NCBI GenBank assembly: GCA_030141585.1 | Contig: JAQIFP010000049.1 | Location: 1 to 41,381, forward strand | Reading direction: 5' to 3' | Length of the DNA stretch: 41,381 nt | DNA from: Ophryocystis elektroscirrha | Lineage: Eukaryota; Apicomplexa; Conoidasida; Neogregarinorida; Ophryocystidae | In this document: positions 1 to 41,381 of the stretch, one piece after another | Layout: each line of letters opens with the position of its first letter | Numbering within the stretch: position 1 is the first letter of the stretch | The notes under the pieces: generated by a model | Seen by the model: the letters and a program-made list of their open reading frames with translations, nothing else | What the model was told of the DNA's origin: nothing | Database searches by the model: none | Made by a program: the position numbers and the translations under genes

Positions 1-116
1 TATATAATATATAATATATAATATATAATATATAATATATAATATATAATATATAATATATAATATATAATATATAATATATAATATATAATATATAATA
101 TATAATATATATATAA
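1..116. repeat. 7-bp AT microsatellite (TATATAA)n
   Basis: The left edge is a nearly perfect tandem array of a 7-bp unit, TATATAA, about 16 copies. It runs into the window edge, so its full length is unknown. It lies downstream of, or within an intron near, the 3' end of the subtilisin gene. No coding potential. Confidence 0.95.
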
Positions 117-231
117 ATATATTGTACAAAAAATAAATTTATTGTAATTAAGATATCTTCATTATTCTATGATTTTACTTTTTATTAAATTCTATTTATA
201 TTATTGGTTTTCGCAAAAATATCTTTGATAC

Positions 232-1759
232 CGTGTCGGGCTTATCAATATTACTAAAATTTGTACAACAATTTGATCATTTTAAATAAGAAATATTGAC
301 ACTAATCTCTTACACATCATTATCAACTCCATTATTTCCCGCAGAGGCAACAACAAGTATACCGTATGAAGCTAATTTTTTAATCATCAAATATTCCAGT
401 TGCCTAGCTTTGCTGAATTATTATAATATTAGGAAACTTATGTGAAATCAAATTGCTATTTATTAACATAAATGAAGCTACCTAATTTTGACTGTTCCAA
501 AGCTTAAATTAACTATGTCTGCTTTTTTATCAATAGCATAGTCTAATGAAGAAAGAAGGCGGCTTATATTAGACTGATTTTTTTTTCGGAACTTAAGGCA
601 CATTATTTCACAGTTAAAACATCCGCCAAGCAAATTTTGACTATTAGAGGCAATTATTGCAGCAAGAGCTGTTCCATGTCCTTCTGAGTCTGGAGATTGT
701 TCCAATGGAATATTATTAGCAAAATCCTGAACGAAATATTATTTTACTAAAATCCATTACAAAGCCAATACAATCGTCAATGTAGCCATTATTGTCATTA
801 TCGATGCCATCATTGCATATTTCGTCTTTATTTCTCCAAAATTTTGTTTGCTTAAACGCTGGATGCTTTAGATCACATCCAGTATCAACAATCGCTATCC
901 TTACTGGCTTAGTATCAGCTGGAATAAATAGTGTATAAATAATGAAAAAACATGTTTTAATTAATGATTTTAATATTCTATAAAATTACATTTATATATA
1001 TTTTTTTTAATTTTAATATACAGACAAATCTATATATATATATAAACATATTACTGTTCAATTAACCATGCATTACATAAACCAAAACTATTAAAATGAT
1101 AGATTCAGTTGCGTATATCAATAGAGATAATTTAAATAAATACATGTAATGTAAGTTAAAGTATAACCTGTTTGTGCCCAAGATACGTATTCTTTTGGAA
1201 CATGAGTACTAAATTTGTATGTAGGATCATAATACCACTGATTTCCAAATAATATCTCTGATTTGCGCAGGTATTGCATTAATCGGGGGTTTGTTTGGTC
1301 TGCTTGTTCTTGAGCGTAAAACTCTGCATAAGGCTGATCGGGTTGCTCATCTTGAAAATCTATCTCGTAATCCTCCACATGAAACTCAACACATGGCAAA
1401 GAATCCACCAAATTTGATACCATTGATTCTGATAGAGCCCTCGTGAATGTCAAAAGCTCAGCATTTAATTTCTGATGATATTGTCCATGCACAGAAAACG
1501 ATTTTAAACTTCTTTCATTACTTAAATTATTAAATAAGTTCTTTGAGCGTTCTTTGATTACACGCATCACATAATTCCGCATTTCCAAAGTTTTTTTATT
1601 ATCACTAATACTTCTAGTCCTATTTGTTAATGGTTTATACATCATGCAATACCGATCCATATTATAAACTAAAATATGAGAAGTGTTGGAACCTTCTATA
1701 TTTTTAGTTAAATATATTACAGGTAATAATGCGAAAAAATATTTCTTTAGCTTTATCAT
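232..1759 (-). CDS. subtilisin-like serine protease (secreted, 3' part outside window)
   Basis: Exons 1759-1168, 918-761, 726-482, 412-314 and tentatively 253-232; the rest lies beyond the left edge. The start at 1759 opens a hydrophobic signal peptide (MIKLKKYFFALLPVIYL), so the enzyme is probably secreted or in the endomembrane system. Residues ~20-195 look like an I9-type propeptide. The S8 catalytic domain follows: Asp in IAIVDTGCD, the insert GIDNDNNGYIDDC, catalytic His in SEGHGTALA, the strand ADIVNLSFG, and the oxyanion-hole region VVASAGNNG. The catalytic Ser block (GTS) is not in the window. The second intron (760-727) is only 34 nt and is required to join GF to DFANN. The Asp and His blocks resemble apicomplexan SUB proteases. 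Family assignment is secure; substrate and subfamily are not. Confidence 0.88.
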
Positions 1760-1911
1760 TACAAATTTGATTAATTACTCATACTACTTTAATGTCAACT
1801 TATTATTTTAAGTCGAGTTATTTAATTAATTTTATAATAAGAAATTTTCTTTTATTTATAGTTTTATCGGTTGATATTATAAAAAAAACCTTAATAAAAG
1901 CGATATTTTCT

Positions 1912-3922
1912 TTAAATGTATTCACTTATTTTAATTATGATTCCACGTTCTTTTTCTTTGATTTGCTCAAATAAAAATTTAATTACATTTTTGCAATGTT
2001 TTACTTTGTTTTCCTTCCTTGGGGATTCTTCCATTAACAACTAAAAATATTATTTAATTTTAATTATACCTTCAAGCAGCGCGGATAATACTTGAATATA
2101 TACACGTCACGGGAATCGCGTAAAAACGTGTGAGCTCCACCCACAAGAATTATACACTGCTTGTCTTCATTTAAAGCCATGCAATGACAACATCGCGAAT
2201 ATTTACTAAGAGAGTTAGAATTAACAGCTGTAGAAGCTGAAATGCTTCTATTTTGTAGATGCCCTTCTTTTATATATATAGGAAGCCAGGTACCAGACTC
2301 AAAATTGAATTCAAAAAAATCACAGTATGTTTTCTTATCGTAGGACCTTCCACCTTGAATTAGCCATCTGTCATTTATTACAACTCCCGCATGCCTAAAA
2401 GTTTTTGTAAATATAATAATACTATAATATGACTATAACATGTATGAAATTATTGAAAGTTAATGTTGCGAATCATCAATACCTTGAACGTGGTGCAGGG
2501 ACGATGCCATGCTCATATTGCTCCTCCCAACTATGAGTATTCAAGTTCAATCTCATCAAGGGGTCGAAATCTCCATTAACATTGCATCCACTGTGTACAT
2601 ACATGTAATCTTTCCAGATAGCTGCTATATGCCAGCTTCGCGTATACACTAAAAACTGTAATGTGCGTGCTTATAACATAAATGTTTCAGCTTAATTTAA
2701 TTGTATTGAACTGCAAATGTGGTAAACTCAGATTAATCAAATTAATTAGAAATAAAGTAATTTAATGTATTGGAAACTTGTATATAATAAATTGAAGTAT
2801 TAGTTGCAAACAATAACACTACGAATGTCTACCTGTATCTTCGGGTGCTTCAATTGTAGACCATTTGAGAGATTCTAGATCAAATAAAAACGTATCGTTA
2901 TATATTTCAAAAAGTTTATATCCTCCGTGAATAATGAGATAATTTTTCCATATTACTGCTGAATGACCTGCTCGTGGAGAAGGACAGTGCTCATCAAATT
3001 TGAGTTTATAATCTTTCCATATTTTTAGTTCTAGGGAATAAAACCATAAAGTATTATCATAACAATTGGCCACCACGCCGCCAAACATCAATATGCAGTT
3101 TTTATCTCTCACGGAGCTAGAATTGCAGTCGAAAAATATTTCATTGAAGCAGTTTGAGTTTAATGAATATATATTGGCGGTATGCCCTATACGATTCAGT
3201 AAACAGTTGCGAGGTACACTTGTTTCATTCCAAATAATGCGATCCCATTCAAGTGTATCTGCAACAGTAGATCTTTAGTATACTTTACAATATTTGAATT
3301 TATTCATAATTATAACAAAGATGACTAATGTTTTGTTAATCTATTATTGCACAAAACTTAAATTATAGTACATATAAGGTTATTCCATCAAGACAGGGAA
3401 TAAATTCAATATTTAAAGTAAAGTGTAATATATATACATGCTGCATAAAATTAAAATTATCCCTTAAATGCAATTATCTTTATAATTATGTTATTAAACA
3501 TATATTCGATAATTCATATATACATATATATATATATATATATTTAACTAAAAACTTATGTTTACATTAACTATTTTAAATAGAATATACAATTATTTGC
3601 TAATCAGATTATTATAGAAAAATACAAAAAGTTTATTACATTTAATTCATATATATATATGTAATATATGTTTACATGTAACATGTTATTTTAACATGGC
3701 AATTAATTAAAACATTAAGTATCTACCAAAATTAAATTCGTAAAATATTATGTTTTCTTCTTGCCAGTTAAGACCTCCAATCAAATAGAATCGGTTTTTA
3801 TGATAAACACCGGCGTGACATGATATAGATATAGGAAGACAAAGGTTGGATAGATTTTCGACTTTTTTATTATTTTGTCGAGAAATTAAAGCAACATATT
3901 CATAATCGGATAGTGAATCCAT
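1912..3922 (-). CDS. kelch-repeat beta-propeller protein
   Basis: Exons 3922-3727, 3258-2833, 2648-2483, 2394-2070 and 2040-1912 give 413 aa. The protein is almost entirely kelch repeats: FYLIGGLNW, ILMFGGVVAN, LIIHGGYK, YVHSGCN, WLIQGGRSYD and IILVGGAHTF mark the second strand of successive blades, with downstream Tyr/Trp (WFYSLELKIW, LNTHSWEE) as in the kelch consensus. It is likely a single-propeller, protein-binding adaptor; no BTB, F-box or RING is attached. The last intron (2069-2041, 29 nt) is inferred: without it the ORF stops two codons later (Val-stop), but with it a further 42 charged, lysine-rich residues follow, ending at 1912. Next gene upstream is divergent (the MscS-like channel). 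Partner and function unknown. Confidence 0.85.
3490..3542. repeat. AT dinucleotide tract in kelch intron 1
   Basis: A run of TATA/ATAT dinucleotides inside the 468-nt first intron of the kelch gene (3726-3259). Similar tracts mark most long introns here. Nothing else recognisable. Confidence 0.7.
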
Positions 3923-4421
3923 AATATCAAATTTTATTATTTAACATACTCAATGAAACCAAAAATAAATTGTTAAAATAATCATTTATATATTGATAAA
4001 AGCTTTCATTTTAAAAATGAAAATTCTTATATAAATTAATAAAAAAAAATAATATTTAGCAAAAATACTTGATGTTTGTATGCAACCTTGCAAACATAAT
4101 TATTTAATTTAAGGAATGTAAAATTTATATGTGAGTAATAAAAAATTAAAAATACATTCAAGTATTATTATATTGATTTGCTATAATTGTTATCAATGTG
4201 TTATTTCTAATTATGTAAGATTTTATGTACAAATGTGTTTGATCTAAATTTTATAGTTATTTCGATCAACCAAAATCACTATAGAAATGAAATTATCAAT
4301 ACAAAACTAATTCATGTAAAATTTATTGATTCAAATCAAATAAAAACTATAATTACAACATTTAAAGTAAATTTTCACTCTTTTATTAATACCAATTTGT
4401 GGAAGTTTTTTGAATTTGTCG
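3923..4421. other. divergent intergenic region, kelch / MscS-like gene
   Basis: About 500 bp between two divergent start codons, so it should hold both promoters and 5' UTRs. It is extremely AT-rich. The short open frame over 4235-4453 does not match the splice phase of the MscS-like gene and is most likely 5' UTR. I see no defined motif. Confidence 0.5.
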
Positions 4422-6419: not shown

Positions 6420-6450
<31 letters not shown>

Positions 6451-9052
6451 TGTATACATAAATTGATTGATAAAAGAAATGATATAAAATTGCGTAAATT
6501 TTGATTAATTTTTGATTAATATTAGGTGTAACTATAAAAATATCTTCTATCTATATAGCAAGATTAGTTGGAAAAAAACTTTTTGACGATTTCGTAGCAT
6601 TTCGAAATTTCCTCTGTCCTGATACAACTCTTAATGCATATCAACGTGATGTTATATTTAAAAAAGCTGTGCTCGATAAATTAGGTGTTCAATCGCTTAA
6701 AGATTTTGATGTAAAAAGTTTTGAGCTTAAAGGTACAGTCAACACACATAGCAACATAATTGAATATATTGAAGCATTTTATATTGTTTTGATATGAATA
6801 AATTTAAGAAACTATTCTATTTATATCTTCGAAGCATCTTTAGATTGAAATATAAGCTGTTTGTAACGGCTTTATAATAGCAGCATTTATACGTTTTATA
6901 CCTACCATGCAAATGTATATTAATCACATATATTAGAAAGATTATTAATATTTCAAAAAGTCGGTAGCTATACACGTAACATAGATTATGATGGCAATGT
7001 ATTTTTTGTGCTTATTGTCGTAAATGTTAAATTAATAAATTTATTAATTTATTTTAGAAAAAAAAAAGGAAGAAATAAATGAATTTAAAAACACAAAAAA
7101 TTATATTACAAAACTCTTTGAATTACCAATAGTGACCCGCAGCTTCAGTAGTGACGAAAAACCTACTGGACTTAAAAACTCCAAAGTTGTAGATAAATCT
7201 CAACCCAAAAAAACAACTATTAACCATGAACCATCGCGGGTTTATACTAAATTAACTGCCCAGGAGAAGTCGCATATACTTGAAAAAGTTAATGCTATAG
7301 ATAAACCTACTATGGTCGATCCTTCCCTCTCAAAAAATGTCACTGGAATCATTTTCCAAAGTGAATCTCGAAGTGATTCCGACAAGAAAGAACCAGTAAC
7401 ACTTGATGGGCCGGCTGTCCGTTTACATAAACAAACAGTCACACAAAAACACCAACCTAATCGCTGTTTTTCACGAGAGTTTTTTAGCATGTTTGTCATA
7501 GACGGTTTCGAAAAGTTCATGTATCTATTAGACCCATCAGGTATTCAAATAACTTCTTTAACTTATAAAACAGCTAATTGAGTAATTTACCATATTTTTA
7601 GTACTCATGTAGAGTTAGATCAGAAATATGAATAGTTATTCATGTTACATACGCCCCAGCAATTGTCAAACTTAAATATATATTGCATTAATTTATAATG
7701 CAATTTATTTATAAGTCATCTATTAAATACCATCTTTAAATTGTAATGAAATAAATACAGAAATTCAGGAAGGAAAATTGTTTATCAACGTGAGTTTGAA
7801 GCAATAATTGAAGAAATTTTTCGTTCGCGCGAACAAGTATTAATTCTCGTAAACAGCCAAGATGGTATACAAAAAGTTTTCCATCGTCTTGTGTCTGGTG
7901 TTTTTAGCTGTATAATGGTTCTAGTACTTTTGGTCGTTTTGGGTGTTTCTCTTACCACAATAATGATTTCTGGGGCAGCTGCTTTTTCATCTATAACTGT
8001 TTCATTAAGTAATCTTCATTATTTTATATATAAATAATTATATTATTTATTGTATGTTATAATTTGAAATAATTTCATTCTTTTTATATTTTTTTTGTTA
8101 CTATAATCTATATCCAAAAGTTCATTGGAAAATGTTTACGTATAATTGTACAGTTTATAGAAATAAATAGAATTTAATATACTGTTATTTGTTACTATGA
8201 ATTACTTTATATAAATTAACTTTAGGTGTAATATACACAAATTTCATTCAGTCTGTTATTTTCGTATGTTTTATAAACCCATATGACGTGGGGAATCGTA
8301 TACGTATAGATAATGATAATTTGTACGTTGTTAACAAAATAACTACTTTTTATACGGAAATGTTTGATGTACATGGAAGATTGGTAAAAGAAATCATTAT
8401 CTATTTTAGCTTATAGGTCTATTGGACTCATTCATTATTATCTACGATGAACATTAAAAATGAAAGTAGATGGAAGCATGCTGGTTTGGAATTACATGTT
8501 AGTATTGCTTATGATACTCCTCCATCCAAATATGAAGTAATCAAATATAAATATATGAGATGTTCATTTTAAATTAATACGAATTTCAATTGCAATAACT
8601 TATAATTTTACCTATATAAATGTAATTTGTTAGCAAAGGTTTTTGTTCGTAAAGTTAATTTTGAACTGAAAACTATTAATTATAATTATTTGAAGTTTCC
8701 ATAATTTTTTTAATTAGGCGCTGCATCAGTTTGTTGAAGACTTCATACAAACAACGCCAAACTACGTTAAAAATTCTTTCTTCTGCTTTGTAAATAATGT
8801 GGAAGTAGGGCATTTTATAAGGGTGAGTAGAATAAGTATTTAAAGCTTCAATAGTTTACATATTGGTGCTCCTGTGTCGATAGCTGGCACAACTGGAAGT
8901 CGGTCTGGAATTCACGGGGAAAACTTATACAGCTAATAATACGAAAATGTAAAGAATTGGAGATTCATTATAAATTACCTATACTGCCAGCACAAATAAA
9001 GAATAGCCAATATTTGCCAGAGTTCGGAAATAAAAATGCTGGATTTTTTTAA
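4422..9052 (+). CDS. MscS-like mechanosensitive ion channel, plant MSL type
   Basis: Twelve exons: 4422-4438, 4530-5208, 5238-5356, 5758-5836, 5870-6128, 6526-6732, 7058-7540, 7769-8008, 8226-8383, 8417-8536, 8718-8822, 8855-9052; 887 aa, frame closed. The start is a 17-nt exon (ATG at 4422) whose GTAAGT donor joins in phase to the acidic N-terminus. Several hydrophobic segments follow ([50 protein letters not shown]). A charged cytoplasmic loop precedes the MSL signature: [13 protein letters not shown], the helix [18 protein letters not shown], then [14 protein letters not shown] and the beta-domain ([18 protein letters not shown]). This is the layout of the plant MSL4-10 subfamily rather than bacterial MscS, so it should release ions on membrane stretch; membrane location unknown. 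Introns of 29, 33, 33 and 32 nt alternate with seven of 91-401 nt. Confidence 0.88.
6270..6455. repeat. TA/CATA-rich low-complexity tract in MscS-like gene intron
   Basis: Imperfect TATA/CATA repeats in the 397-nt intron 6129-6525. They create a false Tyr/Ile-rich open frame on the minus strand, which is not a gene. Confidence 0.75.
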
Positions 9053-12314: not shown

Positions 12315-12362
<48 letters not shown>

Positions 12363-20920: not shown

Positions 20921-20947
20921 TTGGCCCCCTTACGGGGTGCCATTTGA

Positions 20948-20979
<32 letters not shown>

Positions 20980-21029
20980 GGCCCCTGCGCAAGGATGACG
21001 CTTACAAATCGAGAAGTTTACAAAGTTTT
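20921..21029 (+). ncRNA. U6: U6 spliceosomal snRNA
   Basis: The central block, AAATTGGAACGATACAGAG then AAGATTAGCATGGCCCCTGC then GCAAGGATGACG, is near-identical to human and plant U6. It includes the ACAGAG box at 20963-20968 that pairs with the 5' splice site and the AGC triad with the internal stem-loop sequence. The 5' stem-loop is GGCCCC/GGGGTGCC around 20923-20940. A T-run at 21026-21033 is the RNA polymerase III terminator. The 5' end is set by analogy with human U6 and is uncertain by a few bases. Its presence fits the heavily intron-filled genes around it. Confidence 0.95.
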
Positions 21030-21196
21030 TTTTCTCTCGTTCAATTTTCACCACGGTTTTTTTTTTAAATTACAGAAACTAAAAGGAATTTGAATCAAAA
21101 CTCGATTATACAATGAAAATAGACAATCAACATTCATACAGCTATAATCTTTTGCTTTTGCAAAATTTTATTTATTTTAGGATGCGTTCTGATTAA

Positions 21197-24100
21197 ATGG
21201 GTAAAAAGTCTAAAACAAGCAAAAATCGTTTAGATAAATTTTACCATTTAGCTAAAGAACAAGGTTATCGTGCTCGTTCAGCATTCAAATTAATTCAAAT
21301 TGCTCAAAAGTTTAATTTTTTTTTAAACTGTGATTGTTTATTAGACTTATGTGCAGCTCCAGGAGGATGGTTACAAGTTGCTCGGAAATATTTAGCAGAT
21401 AACAAAATAATAATCGGTGTAGATTTAGCTCCGATCAAACCTATAAGAAATGTTATCACAATACAATCTGATATTCGGACTGCGCAATGCAAAAGCGTTA
21501 TCGCGAATATCTTAAAAAATCAACAATGCGATGTTGTTCTCCATGATGGTGCTCCTAATATGGGTACAGACTGGAATCATGATGCATATAACCAAAATGA
21601 ACTGGTATTACATGCTCTCAAATTAGGCTCGAATTTTTTAAAAAAAGATGGTATTTTTATTACCAAAATATTTAGATCACAATATTATAATTCAGTATTA
21701 TGGGTAGCACAGCAACTATTTCAAAGAGTTATAACTATGAAGCCAACAGCTTCAAGAGATGCTTCTGCTGAATTATTTTTTGTATGTCATGGATATAAAG
21801 CCATACAAAAAATTGACCCCCAATTTTTCAATCCTCAAAAAATTTTTACTGACATTGAAGTGAAGACAAAATCCGAGTCTTCTAAGAGAAGCTTGAAAGA
21901 ATTATTACTTGAAGCCAACCGACCTAGTCGTCAAGGATATAATGATACTAACTTGTATAAAGTAGCTTCGGTTATTGACTTTTTTAACGAAAATATTAAA
22001 CCTGCTGAATTTTTAGTTTCTTATAACAAAATTTCTTTCGACAAAAAAGAAGAAAATGACAAAGGTTTGATTGATCGTATATTAACAGACCCTCTCACTA
22101 ATGATGAAATATTACATTACTGTAAAGATTTGAAAGTAAAAAAAAAAAAAAAAAACGATATCTTTTTAGGTTTTGGGAGTAAGAGAATTGTCTATGATCA
22201 TGAAATGGAGAGCCAAAATATTGCGTGCTTTATCTAAAGAAAATTTATTGACTTTAGAAGATGCATCTACTAAAGCAGATTCTGACCACCAAGAAATGGG
22301 TAAGCCAATTTCCTATCTTTTATCAAACAGAGGAAAAAGAAGTCGATTTATATGCCGAGCAAGAAAACAAGTTTCAAGAGGAACTAAACTCTTTAATAGA
22401 ACAAGAAAAAAAAGCCAAACTAAAGGAGAAAAGAAAAGAGAGAAAGATACTAAAAAAAAAACAAAGCTTAAAAGAAAAATCTTTTTCTGCATTTGGACAT
22501 GTTGTTGAGGACACAGACCTATTTCAAAGAAATATGGCTGAAGAAGCTTTTAAATATGAAGATGAGGTAAATTAATAAAAGAAAAAAAAAAAAACAGGTT
22601 TTAAATACACTGCCGCAATCATCTGATGAAGAGAGTGATGACTTAGGCATAAAAGAACCCGTTTTAGAAGTTGATGAAGAAGATAAAAGATTGGAGAGAA
22701 TTGAAGGAGATTTGAAATTATTTAATGCAATTAAAAAAGAAAAAGAAAGAGCTGCAAGGATTAAGAAGGAATTGAAGAAAGAAAAAAAAACCCGTAGACA
22801 GTTAGCTTACATGAAAATGCATGAACAAGTAAAAGCTGCTTCTAATGCCCTTGAACTTAATCAATTAAATGAAAATCAAGCAAAGTATAACTTAAGTGAA
22901 GAAGATGTTTCTTCTGCTTCAGAGTTTCACATTTCAGAAATAGACGAGTGTTACTTTGAAACAGACCACAAAACTACAAAAAGCAACACAGACTCCCTTT
23001 CACATACAAAAAATAAAAAACTTAAAAATCCCAGTAAACAAGAACGTGAAGCAACCGAAATTGAATCTAAGAATAAAAAAAAAAATTTTAACGCTACAAA
23101 CAACGATGAAGAATTAGAAGCTACCGACAACGATGAAGAACTTGAAGCTACGGACAACGATGAAGAACTTGAAGCTACGGACAACGATGAAGAACTAGAA
23201 GCTACGGACAACGATGAAGAACTAGAAGCTACTGACAACGATGAAGAACTAGAAGCTACTGTCAACGATGAAGAACTAGAAGCTACCGACAACGATGAAA
23301 AACTAGAAGCTACTGACAACGATGAAGAATTAGAAGCTACCGACAAAGATGAAGAAATTGAAGTTACAGATGCAGAGTCAGCAACATCAAACAATAGTGA
23401 AAATAACAGTGATTTTGAAGAGAAGCAAAATGTAAATCAATTGAAACGAGCTTTGGAAAATAAAATGGCTCAACATAGAAAGTCTAACTTAGAAGAGATT
23501 GAGGATCAAAATATATATAACGCGAATGATTCTTGGCTAAATCAATCATTGTTTAAAGAAGTTGGAATAGATCCGGATGCAATTATTGAAAGCAATATGG
23601 AAAATATACCAGAAATTCCACTCACAGACAAGCAATCAAAGCAAAAAAAAAAAAAGGAAAAAGCAGCAAAACTATTAAAAAAAAAACCCAATCAAACTGA
23701 TTTTGATATAGAAGACGACGCTAAGCCTTTTATTGAAGTGTCTCCAGAATTTACTGTAAATGAGGAGGATCCTCTAAAACCGAAAAATATTAATGAATTG
23801 AAAAAGGTAAACATTTTTTTTTTTTATATGTCAGATGCAATCCTTGGGTCATTTATTAATAAAAAAAAGATACCGAGAAGACCTTCTAGATGGTGCCTAC
23901 AATCGTTATGCTTTTGACGATGATGAATACGTTCCTGATTGGTTTTTGGAAGAAGAAGAGCAATATGCTAAACCTGAACTTCCTGTATCTAAAGAGTTAA
24001 TGCAAGAGTATCGTCGAAAGCTACGTGAAATTGCGAGAACTCCTATTCGCAAAGCTCGGGAAGCCGTGGGACGTAAAAAAATGAGGCTAAAAACGAAAAT

Positions 24101-25902: not shown

Positions 25903-27464
25903 ACATTAAAGAAATCAATTTTAATAATATTAAATTTATATCTGTATGATTTCTGCTTGGTTTTACTGTTTTTGAAATTAAAGAATAATTTTCAAATCTT
26001 AGATAAAACTGTAAATTGCTCATCGGTTTAATATTAATAAGTTTACAAATATCTCGCAATAAAAAATCTACAATTTCTAACCATGTTATTCGGACTATAC
26101 TTTCGGAGATGATTGAATAAATCATATTGCGTGAATTTGAGAATATTGTTTGTAGGCCCTAATATGGTGAATCCAAGAGGAGAATTGGGATATGCTACAG
26201 CATGTAATTTGTCAAACATAATTTCTTCAAGATTTTTATTTATCTCTTCCATCTCACGAAGTATAACATATGCTTCGTTGTTTATGACTTTTTTATTTAA
26301 CTCAGAAGAAGAAATCATGTCGTGCAATATATCCATAGCTTTGGGAATATAATTTTTTATTACGTCAGCTTGAAATCTAATTGAGTATAGCTTATGAACA
26401 AAAACCCTCCAAAAAATAACATACATTTTTTGCTACTTTTTCCTTAGAATAGTTATTATTTATTAATTATATAAATAAATTATTTTTAATATTAACATAA
26501 AAATCTCGTATAAATTTTATCGTGGTTAGAATTCAAATATACAAGTACTCTATAGTAGCTTACTAGCTTTAAAACTTATAATCATCAATTTAAATTGTAC
26601 TAGAGAAAACATACACAGTTGATTCACGCGTCGTATAAGCATTTAAACGTCCTCCAATATTTTCCACCTCATTCTCAATATAAACTTGACTTCTTCTTTT
26701 AGTACCCTATTTAGATAGTTTTATATAATTGAAACTAGTAAACCTTAAATAACATATGTTCTAGGAAATGTGTTATCCCATTATTGACGGCATTTTCTAA
26801 TCTGCTTCCAATTCCTATGTGAACTGATATAGTTGCTAAATTTGTATGCGGTTTATTATAAGTAGCTATACGTAATCCATTTTTCAATTGAGTTAAACCT
26901 GTTTATATAGTATCAACAGAAATCTACAAAATAGTTACTATAATATTATGCAGTAGTGGTTTTTTTTATGTAGAATATTGGTTTATGCATAGTTATATAC
27001 ACATTTTTCCTAAATATGCTATAAAGAAATTAAGCTTTATTATTCCTTCTTATTGTTAATTTTATGATGATACTTATATGCAGCAAAATATACCTAATAT
27101 ACATATTAATGATATACAACAAATACCACCTAGCGTTTACTTATACCAATAATATATAATCAAGCTATGTATTGAAAAAAATTTATAGTATATTCAGTCA
27201 ACTTTGAAAGTATCACTGCACTTCACAAGTTTAATGTTAAAGTATAAGTTTAATAGAAATGTCAATTAAATATTGTTCAAGTTATATATGCATAAACGGA
27301 CAATAAGAAAAATCAATCACAATAACTATGCAGCTATGTAAATGTTGAAAGAAAAATGATTGAAAAATAGTTTACTAACAGAAATTGTGGTTGACAGGGA
27401 GAGTAGAAAAGTAACGCGATAAATAATTGGGTATAAATTTGAGTATTTTATGTGAAGCTCTCAT
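24524..27464 (-). CDS. mitochondrial processing peptidase, beta subunit (M16B)
   Basis: Exons 27464-27380, 26898-26744, 26706-26615, 26406-26082, 25495-25427, 25395-25328, 25292-24965, 24836-24772, 24741-24639, 24604-24524; 456 aa, typical MPP beta length. Residues 1-28 form a basic, Ser/Tyr-rich presequence ([20 protein letters not shown]). The zinc motif is HFLEH in [20 protein letters not shown], with the distal Glu in [23 protein letters not shown] and [11 protein letters not shown] match the beta subunit; the alpha subunit lacks the intact zinc site. The second half keeps SYTDTG-like [10 protein letters not shown] and [16 protein letters not shown]. It removes targeting presequences in the mitochondrial matrix. 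Short introns are 37, 31, 35, 30 and 34 nt. The join between exons 1 and 2 (481-nt intron) is the least certain. Confidence 0.92.
25858..25899. repeat. (AT)n microsatellite in MPP beta intron
   Basis: An uninterrupted TA run of about 40 bp in the long intron 26081-25496. A second, shorter (TA)n run lies at 25549-25573 in the same intron. Confidence 0.9.
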
Positions 27465-27477
27465 TTATTAGGTCCCT

Positions 27478-30142
<2,665 letters not shown>

Positions 30143-30169
30143 ACTGGACCTAAATGCCTATGCCTGCCA

Positions 30170-32903
30170 ATGCCTCAAGCCCATCAATTATCTACTTTGA
30201 ATAGAACTGTAATTTATAATAGTAATAAATGTTTAGCGATTTTTGTATATTTTTTTTTAAATGATTTCCTTCAATTTTAAAATAATTGCAACAAATTTTA
30301 CTCAGTATTTGCGTTCTTAATATTCCCTAAAACAGAAGCAAATAATATAAGTTATTGTGTTTTTAAGCGTTTAACTTTATCGAAATAATTGCTTTATGCT
30401 TAATACGACTTACACTTAATTTTGCTGTTATCAGACTGAGGCTAAAAAATCTAATCTTTCTCTGTTAGAAAAACTTTTGTTTTCACCAAAAAGTCTTTCT
30501 TCACCACCCACAGAAAATAAAATTCATGTAGATAAAAATGTTGAAGAGTCAAGTGAATCATTAAATCAAAAAGAAACACCCACTCAAAATGCGTCAAACT
30601 ATGATAATTCTGGGAATTCACTCAATGCTATTAGAGATGAATTGGAGCTGGAAAAAGTTGATTTAGAAGCCGGAATAGAAGAACAAGAAGAAGAACAAGA
30701 AGAAGAAGAAGAAGAAAAGGAGCATATACCTCTAATACACGGAAGTCGGAGTGTCGATATATATAAGAAGTTAAATAAAATTTCAGAGGGCACATATGGT
30801 GCAGTATACAGGGCTCAAAACAAAAAAACTAAAGAAATTGTTGTAAGTACTATAAACGCTCAAATTAAAATCATGAGAATAAATTACTGGCTCATGTGTT
30901 TTAATATTAGTTCAAATATATATGAATGGATTTAAATTTTGTTGAAATTCGATATATCAAGATTAACAAATTTATGAATATTTGATTAATATATATACAA
31001 ATGTATATAGAATTAAAAAATTATTTTATACAAATTAACTAAACATTCGATTGATAGTAGATATGAATACTATTCATATATATATATACTACACTACTTC
31101 TATATTATATTAATATACTTTTAGGCCTTAAAAAACATTAAATATCATGAAAAAATATGGAACGAAGGATTTCCATTAACATCCTTACGAGAAATTACAA
31201 TTCTTATGCAATTAAATCATGAAAATATTGTAAATGTACAAGAAGTTGTCGTTGGACCCGAACCTACAGATGTTTATATGGTCATGGAATATATTGAACA
31301 TGAATTAATGGTTATTCTCACTCAAGATCGTCCCTGTTTTTCTTTATCTGAACGTAAAGCTTTAGTTCAACAAGTAATATGATAGAATTTTGCTATAAAA
31401 TTTATACTAGTTAATATATACTGACCTGACATATTGAATAATTTTATAAATATATTAAATTTCTATATATATATTTTGATTCTTTAAATGCTTATTTATA
31501 CTTCAATAGGTGCAAAATGTGATATAAATTCATAAATATCTAGTAGTAATAGTAAATAAAATATAATATTCATACATAATAATTAAATTAATTTACTAAA
31601 TTGAATTGAATTAATTTATCATTACATTAACTAGTTCCTATTTTATTATAATTATAATAATGAATATTAGTTGTTGGAAGGTGTTGCGTATCTTCATGAT
31701 AATTGGATTATACACAGAGATTTGAAAACTTCAAACTTACTGTATACAAATAACGGAGTTCTTAAAGTAAATGTATTCAATAATTCAAGAATAAGATAGA
31801 TTTGTGATTTTGGGATGGCAAGGAAATTCGGAGAACCCTTAAAACCATATACGCAAAATGTAAATCCACGTTTCAAATATGTTGTTTACAGACTGTTACA
31901 TTATGGTATAGAGCACCTGAACTTTTACTTGGTGTAAGCAAATATACACCAAGTGTTGATTTATGGTCTGTTGGTTGCATAATGGCAGAAATTTTTTCTA
32001 AAAAACCTTTATTCAGTCCAAAAAATGAAACAGAAGCCTTAGATATGATTTTTAAGCTATGTGGTATATATATAGTACAATGAAGTTAATTAACTAATAG
32101 ATTGACGTTCATATACAGCATATTTGATATATCATTTTTTAAAACATTTAACTGGTTAGGATCACCAACTGAAGAATCATGGCCGGAGTTTTTCAACTTA
32201 CCAATTGTTACCCGAAACAAAATAATTGTTCATCAACATAATCCGACATGGAGACAAGTATTTCCTCCTCCAAAATCTCACTCAAGTGTAATTTTTATAT
32301 TATTTAATGCAATGCAATAAAGAAATAAATATTAATAGATATAAATTCGAATTTATATGCTATATATGTGTTCTTAAAATAATGTATTTCAATTTTTTCA
32401 TGATAGGTTGAAAATAAATTTATTATTTAGTTCAACAAATATAAATGTGTTATTCATAATATTCAACCAAATTGTGTATTATAGGATGTTGCTATACTTA
32501 CGGATTCAGGATTGGATTTACTTATAAAATTATTAACATTAAATCCTGATAAAAGAATTTCAGCTAAATCTGCTTTACAACATCCATTCTTTACAGTAAC
32601 GTTTTCTTTATATAAAGCAAAATGATAGGAAAAACCTCTTGCTCAAAGAAAACATTTGATGCCTTCTGCGCCTGAAACTAACATGAAAGGTAGCTTAAAT
32701 TGACAATTATTTTTGTTTAAGTTCATGATTTAAAAAAAACGGTACGAGACATTGAATTGAAAAATCAAATGTACTACCAAGACGAACAATCCAAAAGATT
32801 TGGATTTAGAGTCAATCCCAAACGATACCTCTCAGAACTTGAAATAGCTTCCAAGGCAAGAAAACAATTAAGAGATAAGTCACCACTCCCACATTTATTC
32901 TGA
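30170..32903 (+). CDS. CDK11 / PITSLRE-type cyclin-dependent kinase
   Basis: Exons 30170-30208 (proposed), 30435-30842, 31125-31373, 31671-31766, 31800-31859, 31892-32063, 32160-32287, 32485-32595, 32629-32689, 32722-32903; 501 aa. About 95 residues of low-complexity N-terminus end in a Glu run, then the CDK11-type lead-in [20 protein letters not shown]. Kinase motifs: EIVALKNIKY, the PITSLRE helix as [86 protein letters not shown] [12 protein letters not shown]. All catalytic residues are present. CDK11 with cyclin L acts in splicing and transcription. Short introns of 33, 32, 33 and 32 nt fall in the second half. The first exon rests on phase and a GTAATT donor only. Confidence 0.9.
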
Positions 32904-32995: not shown

Positions 32996-34990
32996 TTATT
33001 GATTTGTTGGTATTGGTTTGTATATTTTTCTTCTTTTTACGATACGTTTCTCATTAGATTTTTGACCTGAATAAAGGATATGAGCATTGTCAAAATTACT
33101 TAAACTAGATCTTTTTAATTTCGTCAACCATGAAGGTATTTCACAACCGGACTCTTTCATGACACTGATAATCGGTGCCATATAAGGAAAATCTTTAACA
33201 GTGAAAAATGTTATAGCCTAGAGTAAATCAATTTACATTTTAAAGTATTACTGTCCCTTTTCTACCAGCACGTCCCGTACGACCTATTCTATGAATATAT
33301 GATATTCCAGATTGAGGCACGTCCCAACTTATAACATATTTGACTCCTATAAAGTCAACTCCACGAGCCATAAGATCTGTACAAATTAAAATCCAAATCT
33401 AAATAATAGTAAAAAAACCAAATTTTTACCTTTTTTTCCCGAAATCCTTGTATAATGTTGTCACGCTCAAGTTTAGTGCGCCCAGAATGAATTACATCAA
33501 CGTATAATCCGTCATAAACTAATTCTTTAAACAAATCTTTTGCGCGGTCGATAGATTGTAAAAAAATCAATGTGGGAGGTTCTATTTTTCTAGACGCTAT
33601 CATTTGGCGGAAAATTGTTAATTTTCCTTCTTCATCCGTTACAAACTTTAATTGTTGATCAATTGTAGATGCAGCTGACATTCTATTATCTAAATTATAA
33701 ATTTCAGCAATCAAATCTCTCACTTATTGATATACGAGTAGCGCAGGGAATTACAGAATTAATCAGTTGATTTACATTTTCGGGAAGAGTAGCAGAAAAA
33801 AAAAGATATTGTAAGTTCTGATCTTCATTTATATAAGAAAGAATTTCTTTTATTTGAGGAGCAAACCTAAACATTATATGCTCATGATTAATATAAAATA
33901 AATGTTCAGAACAATAAGACCACAGCGTTACAAGAAGACAATGGTTATTAAGAATACTTTTACTATTTTTCTTCAAAATATAATTTAATAAACGATATGG
34001 GTACGTTGTTTTAAAGCACATTTCTCAACTTGCGTTAAATTATTACCCCATTTCAAGAAGTTTATCTGCTTCATCCATTACTATATGCTTGATATTCGTG
34101 AAATTCAAAAGCTTGTCTCGCAAAAGCTGAACTAACTTTAACGGCGTAGATATGCCTATATCACAACGCTGTTTTTCAATCTTTGCTTTGTGAAACAAAA
34201 TCACTCTGAAAGTTTTTGAACCACGTAATAAATCAAATTCACGCAATCTATTCAAACATGAAAATACGAACTTTGTACATTTGTATGGAAAGTTCCCGAG
34301 TTGGTACTATTACTAAAAGTCGGCATCCACCTTTTTTTGGAGACTATAATAGAACATATGAAATAGTTGATATGTAAGCAGATATGTATCACTTAAAAAC
34401 TAGAAAATTATATTAGACTATGTGCATGCGTATTTAAAATATGAAATAAATATTAGTATGATAATCAAACTTTGCATTATTCTTGATACATTTTCACATG
34501 GTGAATTTAAAATTAATTATGGTAAAATCAAATTACTTTTAGAAGAGATAATAGTGGTACAGCGTAAGCATAAGTTTTTCCCGATCCGGTAGGTGCATTT
34601 ACGATAAGAGAATAGTTTTCTAGAATATAAGGTATACTTTGCATTTGAACACTGAATACATAAAAATAGGCAGACTAATTACGGTGTAAGAATTTTACAT
34701 TTGAGAACATTTGAAATATTGAATAAAAGCCATTCGGGAACATTGTAACTTTTCAACTCTTCGAATGTTTGTATAGGTGGAAGATCTTTAGAATTAATGC
34801 TTCCTTTTTTTACTTTAATGCGTAATTTTTGTCGAAGTGATCTTATGTCTTGTCTATTCGTTAATTGTTTTATTTCAAGGCTTGAATCATCAAGCTTATT
34901 ATTATTTGATTTTAATTCTCGCTCTTTTGTTTTAATATCTTTTTTACGGAATAATGAAGTTCCTGAAGTCAATAAAGAAAAAGTATCCAT
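32996..34990 (-). CDS. ROK1: DEAD-box RNA helicase ROK1 / DDX52
   Basis: Exons 34990-34683, 34651-34537, 34343-34279, 34247-34047, 33866-33724, 33689-33430, 33398-33252, 33217-32996; 486 aa. It starts [12 protein letters not shown], close to the ROK1/DDX52 start. Motifs in order: TPVQMQSIP (Q region), APTGSGKT (I), VPTRELSIQ (Ia), [12 protein letters not shown] (II), FSATLPE (III), [17 protein letters not shown] (IV; very close to DDX52), [29 protein letters not shown] (V), [15 protein letters not shown] (VI), [12 protein letters not shown]1 releases snR30/U17 snoRNA during 40S subunit assembly in the nucleolus. Five introns are 31 or 34 nt. The one at 34278-34248 shifts the donor so that PTREL joins ILREFDLL in frame. 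Confidence 0.95.
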
Positions 34991-35190: not shown

Positions 35191-36089
35191 ATGCGAAATT
35201 TTCTGTTTTTATTGATTTTTATGAAATTCACTCAATCCTTAAAACTCGATTCTTCTGATATAGAAAACATGACTGACAGGTGTTTAATAAATGGTGGAGT
35301 ATTTCCTATTCATGTATACAACTTAAATAGTTTAATTGTTATTTTAAGAGCTATGGTATTAGCTGCAGCGGCCAGAATAAAGTTCCATCATTTTCGTGGA
35401 CATCTGAACCTTCTGAAACCAAATCTTATGCCCTCATTATGTAACATTTAGAAAGTGAATTTTTGACAGGCACAATGTTAACACTAGTGAAGTTTTTTAT
35501 GTAAAACTATCTCAATTCTAAAACTTTAGGCAGCTTGGAATATCCCTGCATCAGAAACGACGTTACCTAATCTTATAAAAGGTCTAAGATTCTACTTATT
35601 TGTACCAACTTTATAATTAAACCCTACTATATTCGAAATAAAAATTAGTAAAATATCAAATAAATGTACTATTCGGTACTGTTCTCTGCTAATGCTGTTT
35701 AAACGTTCAAATATTACACGTACAGATAAGCAATTTTTATTATCAAAAATAGTTATCAAATCATGAATTTGAATTTTTAAAATAATCTTGCAACATAATC
35801 ATGATGTAGATAATTATATTGAGTACAAAGGTCCATGTGCTAAAGAAGATTTTGAATGGTATAATATCATTGTATCTAATTGTTTGCAGCTTTGTTACAA
35901 CTCTATATGCATTGTCAGAACCAGCTTTATTTGTGGCACATCCTAATCCTGACGAGCTTATGAATGCGTTAGATAGAGCAGCAAAACAGGTATAATAAAA
36001 TTATAAAACAAAGCTTCAAGAAACATGTTCTTGAGTCCGTTAACAAATACAGCGTCTTAATACGCACAAAAAAATCAGTTTCCAAATGA
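35191..36089 (+). CDS. secreted PEBP / YbhB-family protein with altered ligand site
   Basis: Exons 35191-35313, 35349-35440, 35470-35500, 35530-35581, 35810-35858, 35890-35989, 36021-36089; 171 aa, the usual PEBP size. A signal peptide (MRNFLFLLIFMKFTQS) precedes the bacterial-type PEBP core: GGVFPIHSYGISCSGQN, VPSFSWTSEPSETKSYALIM, AAWNIPAS, YIEYKGPCAKE, FVTTLYALS, then a helical tail. The anion-binding residues are not intact. The family DPDAP is replaced by HNVNTSE, the following HW is missing, and the HRY block after GPC reads FECF. So it has the fold but probably not the usual phospholipid-headgroup binding. Five of six introns are 29-35 nt (35, 29, 29, 31, 31), and exon 3 is only 31 nt. 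Without the short introns no PEBP match is visible. Confidence 0.82.
36075..36089. other. 15-nt coding overlap of convergent genes PEBP and EH protein
   Basis: The PEBP stop (TGA, 36087-36089, +) lies inside the last exon of the EH-protein gene (-, stop TGA 36077-36075). This depends on the proposed final 37-nt intron of the EH gene (36134-36098). If that intron is retained, the frame stays open further and the overlap is longer, not shorter. Confidence 0.6.
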
Positions 36090-39000: not shown

Positions 39001-41234
39001 AGTTCGCTCAGAAAAGTAACGTTTTAGTTAATTGAGTGTATATTGTTAATTGAATACAAAAACATAAATTATCCCAACTTACACTGATGGATTCTGTATA
39101 TATTCGGATATCAGTTTGTGCAGCGTTTATTAGTTGCTTTAAAAAAACTATTTCTCTCATGTAGTGATCTGCGTCCCTGGCAATTGATATCTGATCTAAT
39201 TCAATCTATCAAAACTTTGATAGATTTGCAATTAAGATTACTTTTCTTCTTTCTTTATAAGTTTCTTTGAGCGATTTTTGTAATTCATAAATTTGATTCT
39301 CAAAGTCTTGACGGCGGTCTAACTGTCTTTGTAAATCTTGTTTCTTTATAGCTAATTTATTTTTTGTAGACTCCGAAAGTGAGGATAAATGACTATGTAA
39401 GTATAATTACATTAACGCTCTATGTGTATGTATAAATGCAGATAACAAAAAGTAAATAATCATAGAACTCAGTAAACAGAAAATCTGATCATAATATTTA
39501 ACAAAACTTTTAAATAAATAATGCTTTTAATGATTCTAAAAAAACGTGAAAATCTTTTTGACAGTTATTTGAACTTATCGAACTACAACTATGCAACAGT
39601 GTGATTGGAATTGAGTAATATAAGCAGTTTCCAATAAAATTATATAACAAATTATAAGTATTTACTTCATTTGAGAACAAAGTGCATCAATTTGTTCTTG
39701 AGCTACTTTGGTAAGTATATTCGCAGACTGTCATTTAAAAATTGAGTATAACTTAAACAATACTTTTATTGCTTGTTGAGCGTAAGCTTCAGACAATTCA
39801 AATTCAGTATTTTCCTCATCATCAAAACCTAAAAACCTAAAGAATTAATGAATCCATTTTTACTTTTCCAATTTTGATATGGTATCAGTTTTTTTTGGCT
39901 TGATTGTTTCAGATTTGACTAAATCTCCAAAAGTTCCTTTTGTACTTAACACATAGCATATGTTGTAATAATTACCTTTTTTTTTTCTTTGAATTTATCG
40001 ATTTATTTGGATTAAAATCAGAGTCCTGAATATTTAAATGTAAACTTTCAAATATTACTTCACAGCAAGATCCAGCATCGGGAGGTGAAAAAAAAGACCA
40101 GTTAGTATCATCACCCTAATATTCTGATACAAAGTGTTGAATATTACTAGCTCATCGATATTTAAAGCTTCTAATGATTCTGGCAAGCTTTGAGGTACTG
40201 GAATTCCTTCACGACAAACGGTGATCTTGATATTATTTAATTTGATATTTATACCAAATGCATTGCAATTATGAATTGTTTTGGATTTAATTGACCAGTT
40301 TGATTTGTGTCAGCAAGTTCCCTATAGTGTATAAAAACTTTTGACGTTAATACCATATCTGTGATAAAGTGTTGTCATCTAAACCAGAGCGACTGAAAAA
40401 AACTCTTGCTTGTTCACCTTATAATGTGTAGTACGAATTTTCGTCTTACCATTTAAACAACAATCTTTGCTTAATTTTCTTAGAAGTTCCAAATATATTA
40501 AACTTTGTTCTCGCGTTATATAGAAAGGATCCCCTTCGTATAAAGGTTTTTGTGCTAAAGAAGACCAGCCAGTCTGTTTTATGCCAATAATTTCTTATTG
40601 CCTACAGATGGAAACGCTGTATATAAATCAGCTGGAACTTCCAAATTAGGTTGCGTCTTATTTGGAAATTATTATTTTAACAAATTTACAGAAATATAAC
40701 CACTATGAGAAAAAACTGGTAATTCAGGAGGAGCTACATAAGCATATAATCATCAATTTAATTTTTACCAAACATAGCATTTTCAAAAGAAACGGGATTA
40801 TTATTTTGTGCGTGTCCTATTAAACGACACGCAATACAAAATTCTTCAAAACTTAAGCTATTTTCCATAGTGCGATCTGCAATGCTCCAAATCTGAAGAA
40901 AATAGCAGCTATGTATATATTAAATGTATCTACTAAAACAGTTATTAACTTGTTAGTTATAAAATAATTAGCGTATAATTAATACACAAATTTAGTCATT
41001 TTATATATTGTAAAATTAATACTTAAAAAAAAATACATATGTTATGAAATTTTGACTACGGATGAAATTTACTTTTTGTAGCAGCTGATTAGATAAATTA
41101 GACTGTTTCAAAAATTCCATAGCAGATGCATAAGGCAATCTTTTTAACGCAGGCCCTTCTGTCATATTCCAGTTTTGCTCATAAAGAGCACATTCTACAT
41201 CTGTTACTTGGGGTAAGGCTGGCGGATTCGGCAT
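36075..41234 (-). CDS. Eps15-like protein with two EH domains and coiled coil
   Basis: Twenty-five exons, 762 aa: 41234-41073, 40892-40769, 40733-40690, 40656-40606, 40573-40449, 40416-40354, 40321-40255, 40225-40148, 40115-39976, 39944-39864, 39836-39764, 39727-39666, 39392-39242, 39205-39083, 38623-38411, 37993-37760, 37447-37292, 37260-37131, 36731-36694, 36662-36608, 36575-36558, 36520-36489, 36210-36198, 36167-36135, 36097-36075. EH1 (~10-95): [33 protein letters not shown], with a degenerate EF-hand. EH2 (~150-235): [22 protein letters not shown]-hand [19 protein letters not shown], then [16 protein letters not shown] long heptad-rich region (~340-600) follows, then [10 protein letters not shown] with an NPF motif. 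Eps15-type proteins act in clathrin endocytosis; EH domains bind NPF peptides. Seventeen introns are 27-37 nt. An upstream exon beyond the right edge is possible. Confidence 0.85.
38106..38236. repeat. 10-bp microsatellite (TATATATACA)n in EH-gene intron
   Basis: About a dozen nearly perfect copies of a 10-bp unit in the 417-nt intron 38410-37994. It makes a Tyr/Ile/Met-rich open frame on the minus strand that is not a gene. Confidence 0.92.
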
Positions 41235-41381
41235 TGATTCGGCAATTTCACTTGCTAAAAATCAATAATGAGTGCGAAAAATAATAGAATGCTTCTAGCT
41301 TTCTTTGCAAGTTTTGTTCACAGTTGTGTTTTTAAACAAATATTGATTGAAGCGCTTCTACTACGCTTCTACTGCATTTAT
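41235..41381. other. right-edge flank of EH-protein gene
   Basis: Upstream of the proposed EH-protein start on the minus strand. The frame stays open upstream to a possible acceptor (TTTTTAG at about 41258-41264), so a 5' exon outside the window cannot be excluded. Two direct copies of a short motif, AGAAGCGC or AGAAGCGT, lie at 41347-41370. Otherwise nothing recognised. Confidence 0.4.

What the first reader, a model, noticed from the sequence alone, without database searches (positions are those of the whole stretch)
1..41381. Sharply bimodal introns: about 57 introns of 27-37 nt, with a gap before the long class
Across 13 of the 14 genes I placed about 57 GT-AG introns of 27-37 nt. Examples: 27 (39863-39837), 28 (23807-23834), 29 (5209-5237, 11685-11713, 11821-11849, 35441-35469, 35501-35529, 40254-40226), 31 (22300-22330, 33429-33399), 34 (10434-10467, 28312-28279) and 37 (26743-26707, 16926-16962). 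The other introns run from 69 nt (481-413) to about 600 nt. Only one doubtful case (60 nt) lies between 38 and 68. Summed exons of every complete model divide by three, which would not happen if these were guesses. Two discrete classes suggest two definition modes: a minimal spacing for single-step intron recognition, and long introns carrying extra signals. Minimal introns like this are reported in some ciliates, piroplasms, gregarines and Blastocystis.
Basis: partly seen in the sequence, partly recalled or inferred. Interest (0 to 1): 0.85.

Follow-up and report, generated by a model that had tools for sequence, protein, structure and literature searches.

The report
Thirty-base introns in a gregarine parasite
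The small genome of what is probably a gregarine parasite is full of introns only about 31 bases long, near the shortest known; they are real, but similar tiny introns were already known in a relative, and the claimed clean gap before the longer introns does not hold across the genome.

Summary
The short introns are real. Eight of the 14 lie in conserved domains or alignments. In a 272 kb sample of the same 8.0 Mb genome, GT-AG gives 352 introns of 27-38 nt (mode 31, not 29) against 36-43 with three decoy pairs. Length-agnostic spliced alignment in the window keeps 10 introns of 29-37 nt, 11 of 96-429 nt and none between. The gap is local: conserved genes on other contigs have introns of 46, 61, 61 and 68 nt. 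So: a sharp peak, a thin tail and a long class, not two discrete classes. The genome is apicomplexan, probably a gregarine; size and GC roughly fit Ophryocystis elektroscirrha, unproven. A like class (25-30 nt, mode 28) is published for the gregarine Porospora. 'Two definition modes' is not supported by the little I could test. New member of a known kind; its practical weight is that some annotation tools (limits recalled, not checked) would reject introns this short.

The parts
22136..22169 (+). 34-nt intron in Spb1 (DLK|VLGVREL)
   Evidence: Spb1 ORF aligned to solved SPB1 up to the donor; DUF3381 profile positions 3-76 before and 72-160 after the junction; GHMM
22300..22330 (+). 31-nt intron in Spb1
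   Evidence: junction after residue 43 inside DUF3381 match 1-87 (25.3 bits, cut-off 25); GHMM
23807..23834 (+). 28-nt intron in Spb1
   Evidence: junction after residue 525 inside Spb1_C match 498-707, 151.2 bits; GHMM
28279..28312 (-). 34-nt intron in V-ATPase subunit B
   Evidence: length-agnostic spliced alignment, loss 32.7 nats if its donor is forbidden; alignment to solved V-ATPase B has no gap there
28922..29345 (-). 424-nt intron in V-ATPase B (long class; the gene's others are 146, 168 and 429 nt)
   Evidence: spliced alignment, loss 21.3
26707..26743 (-). 37-nt intron in mitochondrial processing peptidase beta
   Evidence: spliced alignment, loss 28.7
31767..31799 (+). 33-nt intron in CDK11-like kinase
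   Evidence: spliced alignment, loss 8.3; CDK11B alignment continuous there
31860..31891 (+). 32-nt intron in CDK11-like kinase
   Evidence: spliced alignment, loss 12.0
32064..32159 (+). 96-nt intron in CDK11-like kinase (shortest long-class intron passing the loss cut in the window)
   Evidence: spliced alignment, loss 22.7
33218..33251 (-). 34-nt intron in DDX52/Rok1 helicase
   Evidence: spliced alignment, loss 40.5
33399..33429 (-). 31-nt intron in DDX52/Rok1
   Evidence: spliced alignment, loss 39.1
33690..33723 (-). 34-nt intron in DDX52/Rok1
   Evidence: spliced alignment, loss 18.0
34248..34278 (-). 31-nt intron in DDX52/Rok1
   Evidence: spliced alignment, loss 17.8
35314..35348 (+).
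   Evidence: needed for the frame of the PBP model; junction at residue 41, just outside the Pfam match 46-143
35441..35469 (+). 29-nt intron in PBP/PEBP gene
   Evidence: junction at residue 72 inside the PBP match of 46.1 bits
35501..35529 (+). 29-nt intron in PBP/PEBP gene
   Evidence: junction at residue 82 inside the PBP match
35859..35889 (+). 31-nt intron in PBP/PEBP gene
   Evidence: junction at residue 115 inside the PBP match
40226..40254 (-). 29-nt intron inside an EH domain
   Evidence: spliced alignment to one template, loss 5.4; EH match 61.1 bits
40322..40353 (-). 32-nt intron inside an EH domain
   Evidence: spliced alignment to one template, loss 7.8
727..760 (-). 34-nt intron inside subtilase domain
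   Evidence: junction after residue 53 of Peptidase_S8 match 5-163
413..481 (-). 69-nt intron inside subtilase domain, lower edge of the long class in the window
   Evidence: junction after residue 134 of Peptidase_S8 match 5-163; GHMM
8384..8416 (+). 33-nt intron inside MscS beta-domain
   Evidence: junction after residue 133 of MS_channel_2nd match 86-151, 24.2 bits
15118..15153 (-). 36-nt intron in condensin-II CAP-H2
   Evidence: junction after residue 55 inside CNDH2_N match 3-110
20923..21030 (+). U6 spliceosomal snRNA gene, the only U6 match in the genome search
   Evidence: Rfam RF00026, 103.4 bits; ACAGAGA box intact

Best explanation
The genome is that of a gregarine-like apicomplexan whose ordinary U2-type GT-AG introns have been compacted to a floor set by the spliceosome. 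Most short introns sit at 29-37 nt (mode 31), just enough for a donor, a weakly defined branch adenosine and a 3' splice site, and are recognised as one unit across the intron. A second population of about 70-600 nt introns has not been compacted and uses nearly the same splice sites. Between the two lies a thin tail (39-68 nt), not an empty interval. SHOWN by sequence: GT-AG introns at these coordinates that restore conserved proteins; the length peak; its occurrence on several contigs; U1, U4, U5 and U6 genes. INFERRED: that the peak is a steric floor; recognition by intron definition; the organism (roughly fits Ophryocystis elektroscirrha).
For: Unsupervised GHMM on 272,079 bases: 352 GT-AG introns of 27-38 nt against 43, 36 and 38 with three decoy pairs (bonus 0.15); stricter settings agree, 95 against 4-12 and 89 against 4-10, nine decoys each. 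Counts by length: 27:1, 28:5, 29:17, 30:19, 31:73, 32:61, 33:48, 34:42, 35:42, 36:18, 37:16, 38:10. Length-agnostic spliced alignment of nine genes: 38 introns kept of 46 called, of which 19 at 29-37, 4 at 39-68 and 15 at 96-429 nt. Retaining the short introns drops centrin EF-hand_7 from 101.6 to 35.7 bits, UBC from 136.7 to no match and TYW1 Radical_SAM from 54.8 to 23.2. U1 (5' end AAACUUACCUGG), U5 and U6 keep their usual cores. Among named V-ATPase B hits, gregarines, Cryptosporidium and coccidia stand at 76-80% identity. 8.01 Mb and 28.1% GC in the sample, 27.3% in the window, lie near O. elektroscirrha (8.63 Mb, 27.18%).
Against: No RNA-seq was available, so no junction is seen directly. 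The decoy control is not fully symmetric: GT-AG runs began with a mild preference for A at +3 and T/C at -3, decoy runs with flat values there. Decoy subtraction says nothing reliable about bins above 38 nt. Profiles for V-ATPase B, DDX52 and MPP beta were built from homologues found with my own spliced models, though those models were left out of the profiles. Branch signal is weak: an EM motif beats shuffles (40.8 against -2.2 to 10.8 in four shuffles, but with 8 starts against 2) and has no fixed place; TAAC, CTAA and yTNAy are not enriched, TGA, TTGA and ATGA are (z 4.7, 4.0, 3.7). Some domains hardly change on retention: M24 36.0 to 31.4, Wyosine_form 67.7 to 67.5, Flavodoxin 50.4 to 50.0, as expected where retained introns lie outside the domain or keep the frame. 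Organism: the best-scoring V-ATPase B hit is a Brassica cretica entry (74% over 80% of the query) and the next are unnamed; the DDX52 and MPP beta searches show no clear affinity. G000 has 118 contigs, the published assembly 156 scaffolds.
Confidence: 0.82

Rival explanations
1. Two discrete classes recognised in two ways: a fixed-spacing mode for 27-37 nt introns and a separate mode for introns of 69 nt and more that carry extra signals.
For: Window: 0 of 21 homology-supported introns at 38-95 nt and 0 to 1 GHMM intron at 39-68 nt depending on the setting. In the GHMM set the long class has more T before the acceptor (position -5: 0.69 against 0.53) and more G at +5 (0.34 against 0.20).
Against: Introns of 46, 61, 61 and 68 nt elsewhere, in prohibitin, PP2A-like and CDK-like genes. 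The GHMM long set is heavily contaminated (decoys give as many above 100 nt). With homology-supported introns only, G+5 is 5/19 against 6/15, p = 0.47, too few to settle it. 57 of 155 gene models hold both classes.
Confidence: 0.1
2. The short introns are mis-called: frameshift errors in the assembly, pseudogenes, or chance GT...AG pairs chosen to keep frames open.
For: GT and AG are common in AT-rich DNA; decoy pairs still give 36-43 false introns of 27-38 nt per 272 kb.
Against: Roughly ninefold excess over decoys in one narrow length range; 19 window short introns lie in, or in one case at the meeting of, conserved domains or alignments; centrin aligns to Cdc31 without a gap over 148 residues across at least four such junctions and one of 311 nt.
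Confidence: 0.02
3. The short intervals are removed by something other than the major spliceosome (e.g. programmed DNA elimination or non-spliceosomal elements).
For: U2 snRNA was not found; branch motif weak.
Against: GTA...YAG borders like the long class; U1, U4, U5 and U6 genes above cut-off. An undetected U2 is easily explained by the missing part of the assembly or by divergence.
Confidence: 0.01

Closest known systems
Porospora cf. gigantea (marine eugregarine), 25-30 nt intron class (PMC9250747; passages seen)
   Same: Gregarine; a narrow tiny-intron class (mode 28) making 71-72% of introns, beside longer ones; compact ~9 Mb genome.
   Different: Mode 31 and range 27-38 here; Porospora has a strongly conserved A 6 nt before the acceptor, here A at -6 is only 0.32; GC 54% against about 28%.
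Babesia microti ~20 nt introns (seen only as cited in PMC9250747)
   Same: Tiny-intron apicomplexan.
   Different: Shorter; a piroplasm, whereas no piroplasm is named among the 120 V-ATPase B hits listed.
Theileria parva bimodal introns (PMC2612703; passages seen)
   Same: Apicomplexan with a reported bimodal length distribution.
   Different: Modes 55 and 80 nt.
Ciliate short introns: Stentor 15-16 nt (PMC9505925; passages seen); Paramecium ~25 nt and Oxytricha/Stylonychia classes with means 33-35, 47-51 and 78-80 nt (PMC5014332; abstract seen)
   Same: Introns near the spliceosomal minimum; weak branch consensus in Stentor; several length classes in Oxytricha.
   Different: Ciliates, not apicomplexans; in Stentor the branch A sits at a nearly fixed place, here no fixed place was found.

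Membership tests
Minimal U2-type (GT-AG) spliceosomal introns | GT...AG borders with a donor that can pair with U1 | tested here: met
   A at +3 in 0.87, T or C at -3 in 0.91 of 352 short introns (GT and AG were required by the model); U1 5' end AAACUUACCUGG
Minimal U2-type (GT-AG) spliceosomal introns | Narrow length peak near the spliceosomal minimum, above chance | tested here: met
   352 at 27-38 nt against 36-43 in decoys; mode 31 at four settings
Minimal U2-type (GT-AG) spliceosomal introns | Removal restores conserved proteins | tested here: met
Minimal U2-type (GT-AG) spliceosomal introns | Branch adenosine used, lariat formed | not testable with these tools
   only a weak motif by sequence
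Minimal U2-type (GT-AG) spliceosomal introns | Major spliceosome snRNAs in the genome | tested here: inconclusive
   U1, U4, U5, U6 found above cut-off; U2 not found
Two discrete intron classes with an empty interval | No introns between the classes | tested here: not met
   nearly empty in the window, but 46, 61, 61, 68 nt introns elsewhere
Porospora-type short introns | Strongly conserved A 6 nt before the 3' splice site | tested here: not met
   A at -6 is 0.32, T 0.50
Genome of Ophryocystis elektroscirrha | Size, GC, gregarine affinity, sequence identity | tested here: inconclusive
   8.01 Mb and 28.1% GC in a 281 kb sample against 8.63 Mb and 27.18%; affinity from V-ATPase B only; no named sequence of the species was compared

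The most novel reading that the evidence does not exclude
A neogregarine-like parasite splices thousands of ~31-nt introns (about 9,000 by scaling) with no fixed branch site and with a U2 snRNA too divergent for the Rfam model, so that short introns are chosen mainly by donor-to-acceptor spacing, while longer introns use a stronger pyrimidine tract and +5G.
Probability: 0.08. Interest if true: 0.65.

Novelty: new member of a known kind. Interest (0 to 1): 0.38.

Why it matters
This would be a second gregarine case of tiny introns after Porospora, with a different mode and without its fixed A at -6, which makes the minimum length and branch-site needs of the spliceosome comparable within one group. 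It also has a practical side. If the genome is Ophryocystis elektroscirrha, its published RNA-seq mapping used TopHat and one of its two annotations used BRAKER. The default minimum introns of TopHat (70 nt) and AUGUSTUS (39 nt) are recalled, not read here; if right, they would exclude nearly the whole short class. The official gene set came from GeneMark-ES, whose limit I do not know. The paper reports the fewest annotated genes in Apicomplexa and found BRAKER worse than GeneMark-ES by BUSCO, which would fit.

Tried and rejected
The SSU rRNA search (RF01960) did not complete. The first GHMM runs read N runs as A; their counts are not used. A lightly smoothed dicodon model shrank the gene set; I went back to codon usage with a small per-codon bonus. 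The bonus (0.05-0.25) changes how many introns are called, not the mode of 31. GC was first taken as 27.18% with Ns in the denominator, which matched the published value by accident; without Ns it is 28.1-28.2%. Confidence in the best explanation was lowered a little for this and because only one protein points to gregarines. Decoy counts above 38 nt were first read as proof of an empty gap; rejected, because decoy runs cannot use true introns and fill those bins. A hit to a U2-like word with a changed branch-pairing base gave no Rfam match and by my reading lies in coding DNA. The U1 word failed because the second base differs. In-frame stops in 86 of 86 predicted 3n short introns (90 of 136 and 89 of 130 in the other two length classes) are a detection bias of the GHMM. 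GHMM models are wrong in places (99 for 168 nt in V-ATPase B, 84 for 180 nt in DDX52, 93 nt for two 29-nt introns in PBP). PP2A-like, prohibitin and CDK-like genes were picked because the GHMM gave them mid-length introns, and centrin because it had many short ones, so 4 of 17 outside the window is not a rate. Of the 46 introns called by the spliced aligner I dropped 8 for loss under 5 nats: DDX52 31, MPPB 31 and 586, EH 26, PP2A 69, prohibitin 35, CDK(L016) 60 and 80. The cost per intron was 9 nats (V-ATPase B, DDX52, MPPB, CDK11) or 7 (EH, a second MPPB run). A run with the second half of the MPPB profile found no intron. Ascetosporea were considered as a source (PMC11069148, passages) and dropped. 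Literature: searches showed no paper on intron lengths in neogregarines; only open-licence PMC papers are held.
Full report
WHAT THE WINDOW IS. The window is contig C62 (1-41381) of a genome of 8,008,172 bases in 118 contigs. GC is 27.3% in the window and 28.1% in the 281 kb that I held, Ns left out. A hand-curated V-ATPase subunit B (487 aa) has among its 120 listed hits (of 7,996) named gregarines (Lankesteria, Protomagalhaensia, Porospora), Cryptosporidium and coccidia at 76-80% identity and Plasmodium at 75%. The top score goes to a Brassica cretica entry (74% over 80% of the query) and the next to unnamed sequences at up to 82%. DDX52 and MPP beta searches gave no clear affinity. So the genome is apicomplexan and probably, not surely, a gregarine. 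Size and GC are near those of the neogregarine Ophryocystis elektroscirrha (8,631,036 bp, 27.18%; passages of PMC10210345); no named sequence of that species was compared.

THE LISTED INTRONS. All 15 listed intervals have GT and AG at their ends and the stated lengths. I wrote a two-strand generalised HMM that learns codon usage, splice-site matrices and intron lengths by iteration, starting from a length prior proportional to 1/L. At bonuses of 0.05, 0.1, 0.15 and 0.25 it introns in the window, of which 24, 40, 42 and 47 are 27-38 nt and 1, 0, 0 and 1 are 39-68 nt. At 0.15 it of the 14 listed short introns. The two it missed, 35441-35469 and 35501-35529, are nevertheless right: removing them with 35314-35348, 35859-35889 and a 228-nt intron yields a 150-aa protein with a PBP domain (46.1 bits), while an earlier GHMM model of this gene has none.

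MORE THAN CHANCE. The same training was run with decoy border dinucleotides. In 272,079 bases (window, 20 stretches of contigs 1 and 2, five pieces of other contigs, cut at N runs), GT-AG gave 95 introns of 27-38 nt against 4-12 for nine decoys, 89 against 4-10, and, at the more sensitive setting, 352 against 43, 36 and 38 for three decoys. One asymmetry: GT-AG runs started with a mild preference for A at +3 and T or C at -3, decoys with flat values. The learned mode is 31 nt (73 introns at 0.15) at all four settings. Scaling the excess to 8.0 Mb gives roughly nine thousand such introns; this is an estimate from a sample mostly of two contigs and the window.

HOMOLOGY WITHOUT A LENGTH PRIOR. 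A spliced aligner (profile or single template against DNA, any GT-AG length from 10 nt, flat cost) was run on nine genes. It called 46 introns; I keep the 38 whose donor, when forbidden, costs more than 5 nats. Window (V-ATPase B, DDX52/Rok1, MPP beta, CDK11, EH domain): 34, 34, 31, 34, 31, 37, 32, 33, 29, 32 nt and 146, 424, 168, 429, 180, 193, 238, 227, 96, 297, 282 nt, none between. Outside (PP2A-like, prohibitin, centrin, CDK-like): 37, 36, 33, 33, 34, 35, 31, 34, 34 nt, then 46, 61, 61, 68 nt, then 171, 280, 311, 180 nt. In the window nine more short introns fall inside, or in one case (Spb1, 34 nt) at the meeting of, Pfam domain matches: Spb1 34, 31 and 28, MscS 33, subtilase 34, CAP-H2 36, and PBP 29, 29 and 31. 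Leaving the short introns in was tested for four genes: EF-hand_7 of centrin falls from 101.6 to 35.7 bits, the UBC domain is lost (136.7 bits to no match), Radical_SAM of TYW1 falls from 54.8 to 23.2; M24 of an EBP1-like gene (36.0 to 31.4), Wyosine_form (67.7 to 67.5) and Flavodoxin (50.4 to 50.0) hardly change.

THE GAP. In this window the interval 39-68 nt is empty by homology and holds at most one doubtful GHMM intron. It is not empty in the genome. A PP2A-like gene (L012) has two 61-nt introns; its joined protein aligns to human PP2A without a gap over 212 residues, and forbidding either donor costs 11.8 and 31.3 nats. Prohibitin (L015) has one of 46 nt (loss 18.7) and a CDK-like gene (L016) one of 68 nt (loss 24.1). 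These genes were chosen because the GHMM gave them mid-length introns, so they prove existence, not frequency. The GHMM introns of 39-68 nt in the sample against 89, 60 and 98 in decoys; decoy runs must bridge true introns by other means and overfill those bins, so this cannot measure the true number. The fair description is a sharp peak at 29-37 nt, a thin tail, and a broad long class.

SIGNALS. Short introns: A at +3 in 0.87 and +4 in 0.59, weak T richness and YAG at the acceptor. There is a slight A excess at -12 (0.48) and none at -6 (0.32), unlike the fixed A at -6 reported for Porospora. An EM motif in the short introns beats four shuffles (40.8 against -2.2 to 10.8; 8 starts against 2) but is broad; TAAC, CTAA and yTNAy are not enriched, while TGA, TTGA and ATGA are (z 4.7, 4.0, 3.7), which I cannot explain beyond a possible detection bias towards stops. 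Long introns in the GHMM set have more T at -5 and more G at +5, but that set is contaminated; in homology-supported introns G+5 is 5 of 19 against 6 of 15 (p = 0.47). So the second definition mode is not supported, and not excluded. The GHMM finds 3n short introns only with an in-frame stop (86 of 86), so no statement about 3n avoidance is made.

MACHINERY. U6 lies in the window (20923-21030, 103.4 bits, the only match in the genome search). U1 (74.8 bits), U4 (88 bits) and U5 (65.7 bits) each give one match above cut-off. U2 was not found with the Rfam model (best 16.4 bits, cut-off 46), with two words or with a 66-base probe; the tool's first look scores only the best candidates. The assembly may lack U2 or it may be divergent; I cannot tell.

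WHAT IS KNOWN. Porospora cf. gigantea has introns with median 28 nt, 71-72% in a 25-30 nt class (passages of PMC9250747), and that paper cites 20-nt introns in Babesia microti. Theileria parva has modes of 55 and 80 nt (passages of PMC2612703). [quoted passage not shown] The main text of the O. elektroscirrha paper as held has the word 'intron' once, for a TopHat maximum. My searches turned up no description of intron lengths in a neogregarine; subscription papers and preprints are not in that library, and supplements were not open to me.

VERDICT. The short introns are real, abundant and present on several contigs; the sharp gap is local; the two-mode reading is not supported. This is a new member of a known kind.

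Noticed in passing
whole genome G000; U1 C31:263312-263473, U4 C1:19927-20059, U5 C118:10827-10929, U6 C62:20923-21030: U1, U4, U5 and U6 snRNA genes are each found once above the Rfam cut-off, but U2 is not found by model, words or probe.
   Followed up: partly
window 20923-21030 +: The genome's only detected U6 gene lies about 165 bases before the Spb1 start codon at 21197, on the same strand.
   Followed up: no
window 23089-23370 +: Spb1 carries an acidic tandem repeat (units like DNDEELEAT) between its methyltransferase and C-terminal domains; the 22001-24000 bin has AT skew 0.30 and GC skew 0.12.
   Followed up: no
window 27560-24300 -: A mitochondrial processing peptidase beta gene with a leader that looks to me like a presequence suggests that the parasite keeps a protein-importing mitochondrion.
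   Followed up: no
window 15320-12379 -: Condensin II subunit CAP-H2 (CNDH2_N 84.9 bits, CNDH2_C 42.2 bits).
   Followed up: no
L010 UBC gene (3048-3868 -) and L015 prohibitin (3351-3319 -): Homology suggests stop-free short introns of 3n length that the GHMM read through; in prohibitin a 33-nt one is supported (loss 8.0). GHMM counts miss such introns.
   Followed up: partly
short introns of the 272 kb sample: TGA, TTGA and ATGA words are enriched inside predicted short introns while TAAC and CTAA are not.
   Followed up: no
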